Shown one piece after another: positions 45,188 through 51,567 of a stretch of 51,999 nt of DNA; position 1 is the first letter of the stretch; each line of letters begins with the position of its first letter. This stretch comes from Bacteroidales bacterium. Its GTDB lineage: Bacteria > Bacteroidota > Bacteroidia > Bacteroidales > P3. Below the pieces are notes generated by a model that saw only the letters and a program-made list of their open reading frames with translations, had not been told where the DNA came from and ran no database searches. The translations under genes and the position numbers were made by a program. The stretch is from positions 1-51,999 of the forward strand of contig JAFXXI010000012.1 of the NCBI GenBank assembly GCA_017542345.1. Reading direction: 5' to 3'.

Positions 45188-45727
45188 TATTGTATATATT
45201 TATTCTATACTCTTTCCCTCTTTTTTTGTACAAATTGCCCTTTCTTCCGCCTCATTTTTCTACGGTCTATTTCTTTCCTAACTTTCATATCTTCTGTTTT
45301 TTACATTTCACCCTCACACTCCCTCCCAGGGGGGAATACAAACACAAAAGTAAGACTTTTTTTCCGTTCCACCAAATTCTCCACCTTTTTTTAACTACTC
45401 CCCACCGCCAACTCGCTGGGAAACAGCATCGGTGCCCCCCTTTTTTAACATTTGCCCCTCCAGCCCCCAATTTTAGCCCCCATATTCCATCCTCCAACCT
45501 CCGAATTTCGACCCCCAAAATCCGCCCTCCAACCTCCGAATTTCAACCTCAAAAAATACCCCCTTCCCCTCCGCTTCCCCTCCGGTCCCCCTCCGGTCCC
45601 GCTCCGCTCCCCCTCCTATCGACTTCGGTCGGGTTGCGAAGGGGGTGCGAGGGGGATGTGGAGGGGGTGCTGAGAGGGGTGGAACAGAAAATTTTTCTTA
45701 TGTCGCGTCTATGTCGGAATATTTGTG
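45188..45727. other. Intergenic region with low-complexity and hairpin-forming DNA
   Basis: 540 bases without a convincing gene. Base composition changes from T-rich (45190-45300) to C-rich (45430-45620) to G-rich (45631-45680). A direct repeat CCTCCAACCTCCGAATTTC occurs twice (about 45491-45509 and 45527-45545). Open frames here are proline-rich or reverse translations of the low-complexity tract and lack family resemblance. Confidence 0.6.
45559..45680. repeat. Polypyrimidine/polypurine imperfect inverted repeat with UUCG hairpin at its centre
   Basis: A C/T-rich arm (about 45559-45616, rich in CCCCTCC) is followed by a short stem CGAC-TTCG-GTCG (45620-45631), which is a stable cUUCGg tetraloop, and then a G/A-rich arm (about 45639-45680, rich in GGGGGTG/GAGGGG). 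The arms can pair imperfectly over 40 or more bases. It lies between the divergent promoters of the giant surface protein and metK. Confidence 0.65.
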
Positions 45728-45867: not shown

Positions 45868-47151
45868 ATGAGCTATTTTTTCACTTCTGAGAGTGTCAGT
45901 GAGGGCCATCCCGACAAGGTGGCCGACCAAATCAGCGATGCGCTGCTGGATGAATTCCTACGTCACGACCCCGAGAGCCATGTGGCCTGCGAGACGCTGG
46001 TTACCACCGGCTTGGCTGTGGTGAGCGGTGAGGTGACCACCCACGGCTGGGTCGACGTGCAGGGCACCGTGCGCGATGTCATACGCCAGATTGGCTATAC
46101 CAAGGGCGAGTACAAGTTCGAGGCCGAGAGCTGCGGCGTGCTCAGCGCCATCCATGAGCAGAGCGCCGATATCAATATGGGCGTCAGCCGCAAGGAGAAG
46201 AAAAACCAGGGCGCCGGCGACCAGGGCATGATGTTCGGCTATGCCTGCCGCGAGACGGCGGAGTTCATGCCGCTGCCCATCACGCTGGCGCATATCATCC
46301 TTATCGAGCTGGGCAAGATACGCCGCGAGGGCAAGCAGATGAAGTATTTGCGCCCCGACGCCAAGAGCCAGGTGACGGTGCAGTACAGCGACCAAGGCCG
46401 TCCCGAGCGCATCGACACCATCGTGGTCAGCACGCAGCACGACCCCGACGTCAGCCAGGATCAGATACGCGCCGACGTCGAGAAGATACTGATTCCCCGC
46501 GTCATCAAGCGCCTCCCCAAGGAGACGCAGAAGCTCTTCGCCAAGAAGGACTTCAAGTTGCATGTCAACCCGACGGGCAAGTTCGTCATCGGCGGCCCCC
46601 ACGGCGACACGGGCCTCACGGGCCGCAAGATTATTGTAGATACCTATGGCGGCCGCGGTGCCCATGGCGGCGGCGCCTTCAGCGGCAAGGATGCCAGCAA
46701 GGTGGACCGCTCGGCGGCCTACGCCACACGCCATATCGCCAAGAACCTCGTGGCCGCGGGCCTGTGCGACGAAGCCCTCGTCCAGGTGGCCTACGCCATC
46801 GGCGTGGCCGAGCCGGTGGGCCTCTACATCAACACCTACGGCACCGCTAAGGTGAAGGCGACCAACGGGAGCCAACACCTTGCTTCAGAAAAGGTGATGA
46901 CCGACGGCGAGATTGCCGCGCGTGTGAAGCGTCTCTTCGACCTGCGCCCCTACGCCATTGTCGAGCGTTTCGGCCTGAAGAACCCCATCTTCCGTCCCAC
47001 GGCCGCCTACGGCCACATGGGGCGCGACCCCTTCGAGGCCGCGGTGACCGTCTACGACGCCGCTGGCCGTAAACGCCAGAAAAAGGTGCAGTTCTTCGGC
47101 TGGGAGAAACTCGATATGGTCGACGCCATCAAGAAAGAATTCAAACTATGA
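45868..47151 (+). CDS. metK: S-adenosylmethionine synthase
   Basis: 427 residues. Makes SAM from methionine and ATP. Motifs: [25 protein letters not shown] (methionine/ATP loop), [71 protein letters not shown] and [11 protein letters not shown]. Length fits the longer Bacteroidetes form. It is preceded by a 130-base leader with a hairpin against the start codon. Its stop overlaps the DUF4491 gene (ATGA). SAM from this enzyme is the cofactor of the radical SAM enzyme at 28234, but the two loci are not linked. Confidence 0.98.
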
Positions 47152-47444: not shown

Positions 47445-48218
47445 ATGACAAAACTGAGTGTCAATATCAACAAGGTGGCCACCATCCGCAATGCGCGTGG
47501 CGGCAACACCCCTGATGTGAAGCAATTCGCCATCGACTGTGAGCGCTTCGGCGCCCAGGGCATCACCGTGCATCCACGTCCCGACGAGCGCCACATCCGC
47601 TACAGCGACGTCTATGCCATCAAACCCATCGTCACCACGGAGTTCAATATCGAGGGCAATCCCAAGGGAATCCGTAAAGTGGAGGATGGCGAACGGAAAG
47701 ACAACCTGCCTAACGGCTTCATCGAATTGGTGAAGCAGATACGGCCCACGCAGGTGACGTTGGTGCCCGACGCCGACGGGGTGCTGACCAGCAATGCCGG
47801 TTGGGACACCGTCAAGCACCAGGGCTATCTGTGCGACGTGGTCAAGGAGTTCCAGCAGTGTGGCATCCGTGTGAGCATCTTCATCGACGCCAATCCGTGG
47901 ATGATCGAGATGGCCGCCAAGACGGGCACCGACCGCGTGGAGCTCTACACGGAGGCTTACGCCCGGGAGTACCACGCCTGTAGAGACGTGACAGGGCGCG
48001 TCTCATGTATTGCCCCCTTCGTGGAGGCCGCCAAGGTGGCCCGCGAATGCGGCCTAGGCCTCAACGCCGGCCACGACCTGTCGTTGGAAAACCTTGCCTT
48101 CTTCCACGAGCAGATACCCTGGTGTGACGAGGTCAGCATTGGCCACGCCCTCATCAGCGACGCCCTCTACCTCGGCATCGAGGAGACCATCCACCGCTAT
48201 TTAGATTGCCTGAAGTAG
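47445..48218 (+). CDS. pdxJ: Pyridoxine 5'-phosphate synthase
   Basis: 257 residues. Condenses deoxyxylulose phosphate with 3-amino-2-oxopropyl phosphate to make pyridoxine phosphate (vitamin B6). Motifs: [111 protein letters not shown] and [16 protein letters not shown]. The usual length is about 235-243. The extra residues lie in a loop after GNP ([14 protein letters not shown]) and after EAYAREYH, where CRDVTGRVS is encoded by a degenerate REP palindrome (47980-48006). The stop codon TAG is part of the next REP copy (48215-48240). Confidence 0.95.
47980..48006 (+). repeat. Degenerate REP palindrome inside pdxJ
   Basis: GTAGAGACGTG followed by ACAGGG and CGCGTCTC: same layout as the REP copies downstream but with two or more changes in the right arm. 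Read in frame as CRDVTGRVS. It falls in a variable surface loop of PdxJ. Confidence 0.7.
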
Positions 48219-48240
48219 AGACGTGACATGGCACGTCTCC
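48215..48240 (+). repeat. REP palindrome spanning the pdxJ stop codon
   Basis: GTAGAGACGTGACATGG and CACGTCTCC. The TAG within GTAGAG is the pdxJ stop (48216-48218). It lies 8 bases ahead of the RAYT start at 48248. Confidence 0.9.
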
Positions 48241-48247
48241 GGATACT

Positions 48248-48922
48248 ATGACGGAATTGTTCAAAGGGGAATATCGTGTGTCGACAGCGCGGGCTGACTG
48301 GCATCGATACGACCACGGCGTCTATTTCGTGACGATATGCACGAAGGATATGCGCCATTGGTTTGGTGAGATTCGAGGTGGTGTGATGCATTATTCTCCT
48401 ATAGGCCGAGTGGCGCACGATAATCTTGCCGCAATGCCAAGCCATTTCCCGTATGTAAATATTGGTGCTTTTGTGGTTATGCCCAATCATTTGCATATGA
48501 TAGTGTTTATTGACAGCAATAAATTGCCCGCCGGTAGAGACGTGACACGGCACGTCTCCAATAATACCATCGTCGCCGGTAGAGACGTGACACGGCACGT
48601 CTCCAATAATACCATCGTCGCCGGTAGAGACGTGACACGGCACGTCTCCAATAATACCATCGTCGCCAAAGAGACGTGCCATGTCACGTCTCTACAGCAG
48701 AGGCCGATAGATGTTGCAACACAGAATAAGTCATGGTTGTCGGTGATTGTAGGTCAATACAAACAATCCGTTACGCGCTATGCCAAATCACATGGGCTGC
48801 CATTTGCGTGGCAGACACGCTTCTACGATCATATTGTAAGAGATCAGCAGTCATACGAAACAATCACCCGATATATCGAAAACAATGTCGAGACATGGGA
48901 AATAGACAAGATGTACACATGA
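48248..48922 (+). CDS. REP-associated tyrosine transposase (IS200-like Y1, RAYT)
   Basis: 224 residues. Y1 transposase/HUH domain: FVTICTKDMRHWFGEI, NIGAFVVMPNHLHMIVFI with the HUH-type His-Leu-His, then LSVIVGQYKQSVTRYAK and LPFAWQTRFYDHIVRDQQSYETITRYIENNVETWE. RAYTs are domesticated relatives of IS200/IS605 transposases that cut and join REP hairpins. Between the HLH motif and VGQYKQ a linker of about 55 residues contains GRDVTRHVSNNTIVA three times, then [10 protein letters not shown], all encoded by REP repeats (48533-48695). Without them the length would match the family's approximately 170-180. Base composition is lower in GC than pdxJ. The last codon and stop overlap the GH20 start (ATGA). 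The catalytic tyrosine is probably in VGQYKQ or RFYDH; I cannot decide. Confidence 0.92.
   Translation: MTELFKGEYRVSTARADWHRYDHGVYFVTICTKDMRHWFGEIRGGVMHYSPIGRVAHDNLAAMPSHFPYVNIGAFVVMPNHLHMIVFIDSNKLPAGRDVTRHVSNNTIVAGRDVTRHVSNNTIVAGRDVTRHVSNNTIVAKETCHVTSLQQRPIDVATQNKSWLSVIVGQYKQSVTRYAKSHGLPFAWQTRFYDHIVRDQQSYETITRYIENNVETWEIDKMYT
48533..48667 (+). repeat. Three 45-bp tandem repeats, each with a REP palindrome, inside the RAYT gene
   Basis: Units 48533-48577, 48578-48622 and 48623-48667 are identical as read here. Each has GGTAGAGACGTGACACGG, CACGTCTCC and then AATAATACCATCGTCGCC. Forty-five is a multiple of three, so each copy adds 15 residues (GRDVTRHVSNNTIVA). Confidence 0.95.
48671..48695 (-). 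repeat. Inverted REP copy closing the tandem array in the RAYT gene
   Basis: GAGACGTGCCATGTCACG and TCTCTAC: the same element in the opposite orientation, following the third 45-bp unit. Read in frame as ETCHVTSL. Confidence 0.9.
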
Positions 48923-51567
48923 AATGGAGCGTTTTTATTGCTGTGCTTATTATGGCCTTTTCTGCCGCCGCACAGGATGTCAACCTCGGCCTGATACCCA
49001 CGCCGCAGCGGGTGGAGGTTAAAAGTGAATGGTTGAAGGTTAAAGGTGAGAGGTTGAAGGTGAAGGAGGTGAGAGTGGATAAGTTGCCGGTGGAGGCTAA
49101 CGAGGAACAGGCGTACCAGCTGGTGATAGCGCCGAAGCGTGTGACGATACGATATGTGGGCGAGGAAGGGTTGCGCAACGCGCATCTGACACTTAGCCAG
49201 TTGGTGAAGCTTTATGGTAACGTGATTCCGTGCTGCACCATCACCGACTGGCCCGCCTATCGCTATCGTGGCTGGATGGACGACCAGAGCCGCGGCCCCG
49301 TGCCGCACGCCGCCTATCGAAAGATGCAGTGGGAGCGGCTCCATGCGCTGAAGTACAACTTCTGCAACTACTATACCGAGCATACACTCTACCAGCCGGA
49401 GTTCCCCGACCTCGCGCCGGCCTACCTCGCCGACTGCAAGCCGCACCCCGACGAGGTCATCAACCTACAGCTCTTCGCCCACGCCGAGAAGACGCTGCGT
49501 GTGCCGTTCTATCAATATATGATGGACAGCAAGGCCAACTTCGACCCCAGCAACGAGGCCACCTACGACTTCCTGAGCAAGCGTATCAAGGCCGCCTACG
49601 ACCGCATCCCTACCTCGCCGTTCTTCATTATCAATTGCGACGAGACCGAGCAGCTGGGCACCGGCCGTGCCAAGAAACTTGTTGACGAGAAAGGTGCCGA
49701 CCAGGTGTATGTGGACTTTATCAACCGCTGTTACGATATCGTCCGTAGAGACGTGACACGGCACGTCTCGAATGAAGAAGACGTCTCAAACCCCGACAAG
49801 GAGACGTGCCATGGCACGTCTCTACGGGCCGACAATGATTTGCGGCCGCGTGTTGTCATGTGGGGCGACATTGTGGCCAAAAACCCGGCGATGATGAAGC
49901 AGTTGCCGAAAGATATGACCTACATCATGTGGGCCTACGAACCGCTGGACAGCTACGACCACCTGATACGGCCGTTTAAAGACAACGGCACGCCCTTCTG
50001 GGTGGCGCCGTCGCTTTCGCACAGCAGCAACATGATTCCCAACCCCTACCGCTACATGAAGAATATCGCCAACCTCGCTCGCGACGGCTGGCGCAACGGT
50101 GCCGAAGGATTGATGAACACCTGCTGGGACGACAACGGCGAGGCGCTGTTCGACAACTGCTGGCACGGTCTCTTCTGGAGCGCCGAGATGGCGTGGAACC
50201 CCATCAAGACCGACGACCCCGAGGAGTTCGCCCGCCGCGAGGAGCAGTTCAACCGCAACTTCGCCCGCCTTTTCTATGGCGACAACAATAACCCATCTTC
50301 GCCCATTAGCCCCATTCAACCCACTAAGACAGCCCAGCTCTACGCTGTCGGCGCTCTTGAGAGTGACCCCCTCATCGGCGACATGTACACCTCCGCCGCC
50401 CTCATGGAGCCTCTGCTCAACTTCAACCCCGACAACACCAGTCAGGCTATGCATGAGCGCATCGAGCAGGTGAGTCACCTGATTGATGCAATCCATGTTG
50501 ATTCTGCCGCCAACCCACACGCTCACTATGCCCTGAAGCGTATCTCGGCCACTATCGACAAATGCCGCCTGCGCCTCTATATCAGCGATACTTTTCTTCA
50601 TCCAGAAATACCGTATGCCGTATCGGAATACTTGCAGACACTCTTCGACCTCAAGCGTGAATACCTCCGCCTGTGGGATCAGGAGAACGGCGAATACGAG
50701 CGTTATATCGTCTGCAACCGCTACGACGACCTGGCCCGCGAGGTGCTGGAGCTCGACAGACATGTCTTCGTTAATGTTGAATGTGGAATGAGGAATGGGG
50801 AATTAAATGGCACGTCAGCCAATTCATCACTCATCACTCATCATTCATCATTCCCATACGTCACTCTCCGTACCCTCTATAACGACCGTCCCATCTACTA
50901 CACCCTCGACGGCTCCGAGCCCACTGCCTCTTCTACCCTTTATGAAGGCCCCTTCCCGCTCGAGCGTTCCGCCACCATACGCGCCATTACCTATAATGAA
51001 TACGGCGAAGGCGTTATCTCCGAGCAGTACCTGCTGAGTCACCTTGGCATGGGGGCGAAGATAAAGCTCAATACGCCATACTCCACCTACAAGTCCATAT
51101 ACTCGGGTGGGGGAGAGGATGCCCTCATTGACGGGCAGCTGGGCAGCAATACCACCTACGCCGACGGCCACTGGCAGGGCTACTGGGGAGACAGCATTGA
51201 CGTGGTGATTGAATTCGCCGGCGAGACGCCGACGCTCCACGAAGTCTCCATGCGCTTCATGCAGAACACCTTCGACTGGATCCTGGTACCGACGGAAATC
51301 CGCGTCTACATCTCCAACGACGGCTCATCCTGGCGCCTCTTCAAGAACCAGACGTTCCCCATGGACCCCCGCGAAACAGGCATGCGTCTGCGTAACTACC
51401 ATATCGATCTGACGGACATCAGCAGCGGGAAGCCACCGATCACGTTGGGCTACCCTGTTGCCCGCTACCTCCGCATCGTCGTCCCCAACCCCGGCCCGCT
51501 CCCCTCCTGGCACCCCGCCCCCGGCCAGCCGAGCTACCTGTTCACCGACGAGATAGTAATACATTGA
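48919..51567 (+). CDS. Secreted GH20 family glycoside hydrolase (beta-N-acetylhexosaminidase-like)
   Basis: 882 residues. Signal peptide MKWSVFIAVLIMAFSAAAQ from the ATG at 48919, which overlaps the RAYT stop; the upstream open frame lacks a signal. N-terminal chitobiase-like domain (LGLIPTPQRVEV...), catalytic TIM barrel from about 105 (YRYRGWMDDQSRG), with the Asp-Glu pair in FFIINCDETEQLG. Later MWGDIVAKNP and YIMWAYEPLDSYDH fit GH20. Beyond the barrel is a helical region, then a chitobiase C-terminal-type beta domain (YVTLRTLYNDRPIYYTLDGSEPT) and an F5/8 type C-like domain (IRVYISNDGSSWRLF...YLRIVVPN). Three stretches look inserted in frame: about 49018-49075 (EWLKVKGERLKVKE), 49742-49835 (two REP copies) and 50780-50856 (imperfect palindrome encoding NSSLITHHSS). 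The motif around the substrate Trp/Asp differs from classical hexosaminidases, so exact substrate is open. Confidence 0.9.
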   Translation: MKWSVFIAVLIMAFSAAAQDVNLGLIPTPQRVEVKSEWLKVKGERLKVKEVRVDKLPVEANEEQAYQLVIAPKRVTIRYVGEEGLRNAHLTLSQLVKLYGNVIPCCTITDWPAYRYRGWMDDQSRGPVPHAAYRKMQWERLHALKYNFCNYYTEHTLYQPEFPDLAPAYLADCKPHPDEVINLQLFAHAEKTLRVPFYQYMMDSKANFDPSNEATYDFLSKRIKAAYDRIPTSPFFIINCDETEQLGTGRAKKLVDEKGADQVYVDFINRCYDIVRRDVTRHVSNEEDVSNPDKETCHGTSLRADNDLRPRVVMWGDIVAKNPAMMKQLPKDMTYIMWAYEPLDSYDHLIRPFKDNGTPFWVAPSLSHSSNMIPNPYRYMKNIANLARDGWRNGAEGLMNTCWDDNGEALFDNCWHGLFWSAEMAWNPIKTDDPEEFARREEQFNRNFARLFYGDNNNPSSPISPIQPTKTAQLYAVGALESDPLIGDMYTSAALMEPLLNFNPDNTSQAMHERIEQVSHLIDAIHVDSAANPHAHYALKRISATIDKCRLRLYISDTFLHPEIPYAVSEYLQTLFDLKREYLRLWDQENGEYERYIVCNRYDDLAREVLELDRHVFVNVECGMRNGELNGTSANSSLITHHSSFPYVTLRTLYNDRPIYYTLDGSEPTASSTLYEGPFPLERSATIRAITYNEYGEGVISEQYLLSHLGMGAKIKLNTPYSTYKSIYSGGGEDALIDGQLGSNTTYADGHWQGYWGDSIDVVIEFAGETPTLHEVSMRFMQNTFDWILVPTEIRVYISNDGSSWRLFKNQTFPMDPRETGMRLRNYHIDLTDISSGKPPITLGYPVARYLRIVVPNPGPLPSWHPAPGQPSYLFTDEIVIH
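49018..49075 (+). repeat. GGTTGAAGGTTAAAGG-type repeat in the GH20 N-terminus
   Basis: GGTTAAAAGTGAAT, GGTTGAAGGTTAAAGGTGAGA and GGTTGAAGGTGAAGG follow one another. The type of purine-rich tract is otherwise expected in intergenic DNA, but here it is read in frame as a basic KVK-rich segment. Confidence 0.7.
49745..49769 (+). repeat. REP palindrome inside the GH20 gene (forward copy)
   Basis: GTAGAGACGTGACACGG then CACGTCTC, the same form as in the RAYT array; read as RRDVTRHVS. A half-site GACGTCTC follows at about 49780. Confidence 0.92.
49801..49825 (-). repeat. REP palindrome inside the GH20 gene (inverted copy)
   Basis: GAGACGTGCCA, TGGCACGTCTCTAC: bases 49801-49822 are a perfect 22-base palindrome. 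Read in frame as ETCHGTSL. With the copy at 49745 it makes an inverted pair. Confidence 0.92.
50780..50856. repeat. Imperfect palindrome within the GH20 gene
   Basis: GAATGTGGAATGAGGAATGG and GGGAATT on the left; AATTCATCACTCATCACTC and ATCATTCATCATTCCC on the right (50821-50856). The two halves are roughly complementary around GGCACGTCAGCC. It separates the helical region from the chitobiase C-terminal-like domain. Confidence 0.65.

What the first reader, a model, noticed from the sequence alone, without database searches (positions are those of the whole stretch)
48248..48922. RAYT transposase gene carries a tandem array of its own REP elements in frame
Three identical 45-bp units, each with a REP palindrome, plus one inverted copy sit between the HUH motif (NHLHM) and the VGQYKQ helix. 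They add about 55 residues (GRDVTRHVSNNTIVA three times) without breaking the frame. RAYTs are thought to move REP hairpins, so this looks like the enzyme's substrate inserted in the enzyme gene and amplified. The identity of the units implies recent copying. It could be self-targeting, a length-variable regulatory linker, or slipped-strand expansion. Related Y1 transposases may have REP-coded linkers too; I cannot check how widespread this is.
Basis: partly seen in the sequence, partly recalled or inferred. Interest (0 to 1): 0.82.

Follow-up and report, generated by a model that had tools for sequence, protein, structure and literature searches.

The report
Transposase gene carrying its own DNA target
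A bacterial REP-handling enzyme gene contains, in frame, several copies of the small DNA palindrome it is thought to act on; this is a known habit of its subfamily, but comparison of many relatives suggests that the built-in palindrome changes together with a few neighbouring amino acids, as if target and target-reader were inherited as one unit.

The parts
48248..48922 (+). RAYT (TnpA_REP) gene, 224 aa, subclass 2.4-like
48485..48496 (+). HUH motif NHLH (aa 80-83)
48529..48667 (+). tandem array: three identical 45-bp REP + spacer units (repeats start at 48529, 48574, 48619)
48534..48558 (+). REP copy 1, GTAG foot + palindrome
48579..48603 (+). REP copy 2
48624..48648 (+). REP copy 3
48671..48695 (-). 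inverted REP that closes the array (REPIN-like end)
48710..48727 (+). last six linker residues (DVATQN): positions that covary with the internal REP across relatives
48728..48781 (+). start of helix alphaC region (KSWLSVIVGQYKQSVTRY); aa 169, 170, 173 and 174 are the covarying positions
48809..48814 (+). W188 Q189, aligned to the GTAG-contact region residues W94 Q95 of E. coli TnpA_REP
48872..48874 (+). presumed catalytic Tyr209 (YIENN), invariant in the 50-row alignment
   Evidence: its role follows from the family
47980..48004 (+). REP in frame inside pdxJ (47445-48218); no REP at this site in the G104 and G006 copies
48215..48239 (+). REP whose GTAG supplies the pdxJ stop codon, 5' flank of the RAYT gene; same place in G104
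49745..49769 (+). REP in frame in the GH20-like gene (48919-51567), first half of an inverted pair
49801..49825 (-). second half of the inverted pair in the GH20-like gene; no REP here in G006

Best explanation
The gene is a RAYT of subclass 2.4 (group 4). Its catalytic core is interrupted, between strand beta3 and helix alphaC, by a disordered linker that houses the cognate REP as a DNA-level element. The residues at the end of the linker and one face of alphaC read the REP body, while the conserved WQ...DH..R region reads the GTAG foot. REP and reading residues lie within a few dozen codons of each other and are replaced together, so gene-internal substrate and reader are inherited as one cassette; the enzyme gene carries a matched copy of its substrate. 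In this lineage the resident REP (an inverted pair) grew by tandem duplication of a 45-bp REP + spacer unit. Growth is tolerated because the linker is disordered and 45 is divisible by three. Shown: position, frame, recurrence, covariation, swaps. Inferred: that covariation means recognition, that the enzyme cuts this REP, that the internal copy serves as a stock copy, and how the array grew.
For: Palindrome (10 or more pairs, at most 1 mismatch, loop up to 5) in 112 of 148 linkers against a codon-shuffled expectation of about 1.1; N-core of the same genes 11, C-core 3. REP phase 0 in 78, phase 1 in 34; seven of the eight types with three or more members occur in both phases. Mutual information with the REP half-site: last six linker residues 2.7-4.8, alphaC positions 8, 9, 12, 13 2.5-2.7, best N-core column 1.95, median of 148 columns 0.33. 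At N-core identity 0.20-0.35, same-REP pairs share 0.78 of these ten positions (n=35), pairs differing at 3 or more of 6 nt 0.15 (n=746), C-tail control 0.43 and 0.41. Leave-one-out recall of the half-site 0.55, N-core 0.26, C-tail 0.25, chance 0.07. In the six large types the motif is kept as protein (aa identity 0.78-0.91) with third-position identity 0.49-0.63, and the REP-to-alphaC gap is 3-70 aa, which speaks against mere hitch-hiking. Swaps in near-identical backgrounds. RAYTs without a linker palindrome: predicted core in the flanks of 8 of 17, other types 3 of 119, p 1.4e-6. Linker pLDDT 41-55, most of the core 91-98. E. coli TnpA_REP K82, on the equivalent alpha3 helix, contacts the REP stem (PMC8266576 section 26).
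Against: 30 of the 142 linker-bearing RAYTs have no palindrome by my criterion. In the syntenic G104 gene the REP breaks the frame and its TAG stops the ORF. The ten positions were chosen on the same 111 RAYTs on which the pair and leave-one-out tests were run. Other columns near the linker end are also high: K-10 3.21, K-7 to K-11 1.7-3.2, alphaC positions 0-2 2.1-2.2. In three RAYTs the palindrome reaches into the last six linker residues; two of them were left out, none. The two small REP types show motif identity of only 0.42 and 0.50. AACGCA and AAGGCA share RFQNQG, so the code is coarse. In 48 of 76 loci with a common type no further copy lies within 1.5 kb, so dissemination from the internal copy is not seen there. 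On starred branches independent pairs are few (3, 5, 3, 2). No biochemistry.
Confidence: 0.62

Rival explanations
1. Neutral residence: group-4 REPs insert into permissive, disordered coding loops of many genes; the RAYT linker is simply such a loop close to the enzyme's place of synthesis, and the array is slipped-strand noise.
For: In G000 13 of 15 REP places lie in frame inside ORFs (products) and 8 of 15 lie in a 1.85-kb stretch that includes the RAYT gene; pdxJ, GH20-like and metK copies show presence/absence among the syntenic loci; tandem arrays without a REP also grow in these linkers.
Against: Presence in most relatives at one place of the protein, intact palindromes where no other copy was found in the genome (8 of 25), and a half-site matched to reading residues tens of codons away. 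Neutrality explains the loop, not the match.
Confidence: 0.22
2. Autoregulation: the internal REP is an operator in DNA or mRNA. The RAYT binds its own gene or transcript and the hairpin array tunes expression or translation.
For: Array RNA folds far better than shuffles (z -9.9); the internal palindrome is kept where no other copy was found.
Against: No expression data; a hairpin inside the coding region could simply be translated through; palindromes fold well by construction.
Confidence: 0.1
3. Self-limiting trap: the REP in the linker is an inactivation target, and in-frame carriers are the survivors of repeated self-attack.
For: G104: REP-supplied TAG and frame shift split the RAYT.
Against: One such case among the four syntenic loci; 151 ORFs with both core halves came from 150 of 168 loci, though these loci were chosen as RAYT matches and the 18 failures were not examined one by one.
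Confidence: 0.05

Closest known systems
TnpA_REP subclass 2.4 / RAYT group 4 (PMC6006769; sections 14 and 23 and passages seen)
   Same: Variable insertion between beta3 and alphaC, REP sequences inserted in tnpA_REP generally between HuH and Y, reading frame kept, GT[AG]G foot, 'double foot' REPs, abundant in Bacteroidetes
   Different: The parts seen describe the insertion, its variability and short repeats; they do not describe covariation of the internal REP with linker-end/alphaC residues, cassette swaps or internal-only copies. The window has three identical units plus an inverted one.
E. coli TnpA_REP (group 2, PDB 4er8)
   Different: Bulged REPs, mostly intergenic (PMC8266576); no REP-bearing linker is described for it in the parts read
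Intragenic GTAG REPs and Rickettsia palindromic elements (PMC3733652; abstract, sections 15 and 16 seen)
   Same: Palindromes translated in frame inside unrelated genes; GTAG supplying stop codons
   Different: That survey stresses DNA-repair genes and describes RAYT genes as flanked by REPs; here copies sit in the RAYT itself and its neighbours
Specificity-subunit domain swapping of type I restriction systems (recalled, no call)
   Same: Works like: exchange of a reading module changes target
   Different: There the target is not carried in the gene; analogy only

Membership tests
RAYT / TnpA_REP | HuH motif and catalytic Tyr on an IS200/IS605-like fold | tested here: met
RAYT / TnpA_REP | Passes the curated NCBIfam model NF047646 | tested here: inconclusive
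   Best hit, E 1e-12, but 48.2 bits against a cut-off of 80; four relatives also fall below, 52-66 bits. Pfam Y1_Tnp 20.5 against 23 bits
RAYT / TnpA_REP | GTAG-contact residues (W94, Q95, E100/D, H101, R104 in E. coli) | tested here: met
   Window W188 Q189 D194 H195 R198 by the phmmer alignment to 4er8; residue list from PMC6006769 section 14, which calls the role of W94 unclear
RAYT / TnpA_REP | GTAG-tagged REPs flanking the gene and repeated in the genome | tested here: met
   REPs at 48215 and 49745/49801; 15 places in G000
Subclass 2.4 (group 4) | REP inserted in the gene between HuH and Y, reading frame kept | tested here: met
Subclass 2.4 (group 4) | Motifs NH[IFV]H, WQ, YIxNNP | tested here: inconclusive
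   Window NHLH, WQ, YIENNV: two of three differ by one residue from the published consensus
Subclass 2.4 (group 4) | Place in the published phylogeny | not tested
   The published alignment was not at hand
Active REP mobiliser | Cleaves single-stranded cognate REP | not testable with these tools
   Needs purified protein

The most novel reading that the evidence does not exclude
Group-4 RAYT genes are self-contained lock-and-key cassettes: the linker stores the cognate REP as DNA, the residues that follow read it, and the pair is exchanged as one module, so that a natural recognition code, coarse at some positions, can be read from sequence (majority pairings: RFQNIG with AGGGCA, RFQ[NH]QG with AA[GC]GCA, ISPK/Q with GTTGCA, NPML with GCGATT, FGPQ with GCAAAA).
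Probability: 0.6. Interest if true: 0.82.

Novelty: new member of a known kind. Interest (0 to 1): 0.6.

Why it matters
In the paper read here, how RAYTs recognise their own REP was studied biochemically for groups 2 and 3 only (PMC8266576). If each group-4 gene prints its own substrate next to its reading residues, the specificity of a large, little-studied family can be predicted from sequence and tested with natural swap pairs. It also offers a reason why these palindromes sit inside the enzyme gene, and a way by which enzyme and substrate stay matched when the gene is transferred.

Tried and rejected
Rejected: chance (codon-shuffle control). Rejected: the linker peptide is what is conserved (two reading phases). 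Rejected as sole cause: spill-over from an abundant genomic repeat (internal-only copies). Rejected: the reading motif is just part of one inserted DNA block (third-position diversity and variable gap). Weak or empty: phage records gave one weak hit; viral contigs gave no exact match to a 20-nt piece of the REP and one distant RAYT; phmmer against PDB sequences alone was weak (4er8 E 0.021). The independent-pairs test is underpowered on starred branches: 3 of 3, 5 of 5, 3 of 3, and on average 1.2 of 2 in the same direction. REP and motif families were grouped after seeing the table. The rule of the prediction test was changed once: a nearest-neighbour rule found the predicted core in 10 of 30 loci, with other types in 5 of 30; the rule reported (frequent types, at least 4 of 6 identical residues, near-duplicates removed) is that. 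One alignment (GH20-like, G104) used a wrong frame and was dropped; the G104 reading comes. One search failed on a pattern and was redone; one search stopped with an error after printing what is used.

Full report
OBSERVATION. The feature is as described. ORF 48248-48922 reads NHLHM, then GRDVTRHVSNNTIVA three times, an inverted REP ([10 protein letters not shown]), then KSWLSVIVGQYKQ. The 45-bp units are identical. Eight REPs lie in the window, all within 47980-49825, where shuffles give a mean of 0.01. Four are outside the gene: in frame in pdxJ; over the pdxJ stop codon; an inverted pair in frame in the GH20-like gene.

ALREADY PUBLISHED. PMC6006769 (sections 14 and 23 and passages seen) states that REP insertions within tnpA_REP, generally between HuH and Y and without disrupting the frame, are a unique feature of subclass 2.4 (RAYT group 4, abundant in Cyanobacteria and Bacteroidetes), with a variable domain holding short repeats. 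PMC3733652 (abstract, sections 15 and 16) describes GTAG REPs inside genes and as stop-codon donors. The core of the finding is therefore a new member of a known kind.

THE SAME LOCUS IN FOUR GENOMES. All four RAYTs have REPs in the linker: window GTGACA/GTGCCA cores, 3 x 45 bp plus one inverted; G090 GTTTCA, 2 x 90 bp plus one inverted; G006 GTTTTA, 2 x 36 bp plus one variant; G104 an out-of-frame pair whose TAG ends the ORF. The window and G104 share the REP type and a linker end ATQN/ATRN with alphaC GQYK; G090 and G006 share LQER/LQEG with RQYK. G090's linker REP is of a family found at 33 places in its genome, 11 of them in 3.3 kb around its RAYT gene; the five matching places in G006 all lie in or beside its RAYT gene. 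Neighbours carry each genome's own type too: metK in G104 and G090 at one site (none there in the window; G006's metK was not in the fetched stretch), pdxJ in the window but not in G104 or G006, the GH20-like gene in the window and G090. In G104 the ORF after the RAYT starts and ends like the GH20-like gene but is only some 90 codons long, with two REPs behind the signal-like start. In G000, 13 of 15 REP places are in frame inside ORFs; Pfam names RibD, glycosyltransferase, MFS and ThiF genes among the distant ones, one ORF has no match, and the remaining two places lie at gene ends.

WIDER SAMPLE. From 168 loci (30 genus, 80 named, 58 unnamed) 151 ORFs with both core halves came from 150 loci; three weak ones were dropped. 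The 80 named loci are the best 80 of 448 found (a capped list) and the unnamed ones the best rows of two searches, so the sample leans towards this subclass and holds a few near-duplicates. Of 148, 112 have a palindrome in the linker: genus 6 of 13 (six of the seven others have no linker), named 58 of 77, unnamed 48 of 58; in 106 a GT[AG]G or C[TC]AC lies at or beside it, and 64 of 112 read exactly GTAGAGAC at the foot. Controls: N-core 11, C-core 3, codon-shuffled linkers about 1.1 in sum (cores and linkers differ in length). The foot position is in phase 0 in 78 and phase 1 in 34 (the third phase would read TAG); both phases occur in GTTGCA (12/5), AAGGCA (10/2), GCGATT (3/8), GCAAAA (9/2), AACGCA (8/2), GGTGCA (2/2) and GCCCAA (2/1), AGGGCA is phase 0 only (9/0). 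TRF finds arrays with period 12 or more in 52 linkers; 77 of 78 rows have a period divisible by three, though some rows describe the same array and an open frame favours this. By the unit sequences, arrays of whole REPs are seen in L169, L122, L124 (also 45 bp), L207, L221, L208, L085, L019, L017 and the window. So a REP array in the linker recurs.

NOT SPILL-OVER. With up to 2 mismatches over 22 nt, AA[GC]GCA-type palindromes number 1-5 per genome in 14 genomes, and in six the internal one is the only copy; in two of the 14 (L206, L210) the internal palindrome has an extra central base and was not itself matched. For GCGATT-type, counts in 11 genomes are 1, 10, 38, 2, 3, 33, 27, 2, 16, 1, 2. 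So the internal copy is the only one found in 8 of 25. Some assemblies are incomplete, and copies with more mismatches would be missed.

A RECOGNITION CASSETTE. Among 111 distinct RAYTs with an internal palindrome, information shared with the half-site (six nt before the centre) is highest in the last residues of the linker (K-6 to K-1 2.7-4.8; K-10 also 3.2) and at alphaC positions 8, 9, 12 and 13 (2.5-2.7; window 169, 170, 173, 174); the best N-core column has 1.95, the median is 0.33. The ten positions K-6 to K-1 and alphaC 8, 9, 12, 13 were picked from this result and used below on the same set. At every level of N-core identity, same-REP pairs share 0.65-0.89 of them and pairs differing at 3 or more nt 0.15-0.22, while C-tail identity differs by 0.03 at most. 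Partial rank correlation given N-core is 0.62 for these residues (largest of 300 permutations 0.105) and 0.11 for the C-tail (pairs are not independent). Leave-one-out recall (109 RAYTs): 0.55 exact and 0.81 within one nt, against 0.26/0.43 for the N-core and 0.25/0.34 for the C-tail; with only distant neighbours allowed 0.185/0.506, against 0/0.045 and 0.05/0.10. A test outside that set: RAYTs without a linker palindrome (17 with a prediction from K-6 to K-1, 12 without) have the predicted core in gene or flanks in 9 of 17 against 3 of 119 for other types; in flanks alone 8 of 17 against 3 of 119. Where the palindrome is present, its type recurs in the flanks of 28 of 76, other types in 15 of 532 tests. 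The motif is conserved as amino acids with much freer third positions in the six large types, less so in two small ones, and the REP lies 3 to 70 codons away, so the two are not one DNA block. In post hoc families, 83 of the 86 RAYTs in a named family agree and 25 are in none; on a core tree REP family changes 36 times, motif family 37 times.

NATURAL SWAPS. Of 176 pairs with N-core identity 0.68 or more, 54 (38 loci) differ in REP by 3 or more of 6; their reading region is 0.45 identical against 0.82 in the others, C-tails 0.57 and 0.58. L083 and L080 align in two adjoining stretches, together about 4.4 kb at 87-89%, separated by 106 and 193 unaligned bp that hold the linker with REP and motif; linker-end DNA identity is 0.11, the 300 bp on either side of the gene 0.90 and 0.82.

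MECHANISM. In E. coli K82 on the equivalent helix contacts the REP stem, and PMC8266576 suggests the same helix for group 3; group 4 is not among its models. The simplest account is that the linker end and alphaC read the half-site, and that substrate and reader move as one module. Tandem growth in the window probably started from an inverted pair: only the forward REP + spacer is repeated, and CGCCG precedes the first REP and ends the repeated spacer, which suits slippage; this is inference.

LITERATURE LIMITS. The listings of searches of the held open-access library, and passages of PMC3686654, showed no report of this covariation; most subscription papers are not held, and the 4er8 structure paper could not be read.

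ORGANISM. The named relatives found are mostly Bacteroidota by title; a Prevotella-like host is an inference.

Noticed in passing
L018 (G104), RAYT gene: The REP in the linker is out of frame and its GTAG supplies a TAG stop, splitting this RAYT: apparently a natural loss caused by its own substrate.
   Followed up: partly
L018 (G104), ORF after the RAYT gene: It starts and ends like the GH20-like gene of the window but is only some 90 codons long, as if the middle were deleted; two REPs lie near its start.
   Followed up: no
L017 and L018, metK: S-adenosylmethionine synthetase genes of two genomes carry in-frame REPs at the same site but of different REP types; the window's metK (45868-47151) has none there.
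   Followed up: partly
L083 and L080: Two near-adjoining aligned stretches (about 4.4 kb, 87-89% identity) are separated only by the RAYT linker cassette: a natural exchange of REP and reading residues.
   Followed up: yes
G000:C21:31338-31404 (L157, L161): Two palindromes of G090's REP type (TTTCATGAAA-like core) lie together in the window's own genome, on another contig than the RAYT gene.
   Followed up: no
L023 (G068) and L024 (G107): Other RAYTs of the genus have different palindromes inside or just after the gene (GGGGCGAATGATGATTCGCCCC, GGGCGTACCCCCGTGTACGCCC), hinting at further REP systems.
   Followed up: no
window 45456-45681: Tandem repeats of period 35 and 11 upstream of metK, not resembling the REPs.
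   Followed up: no
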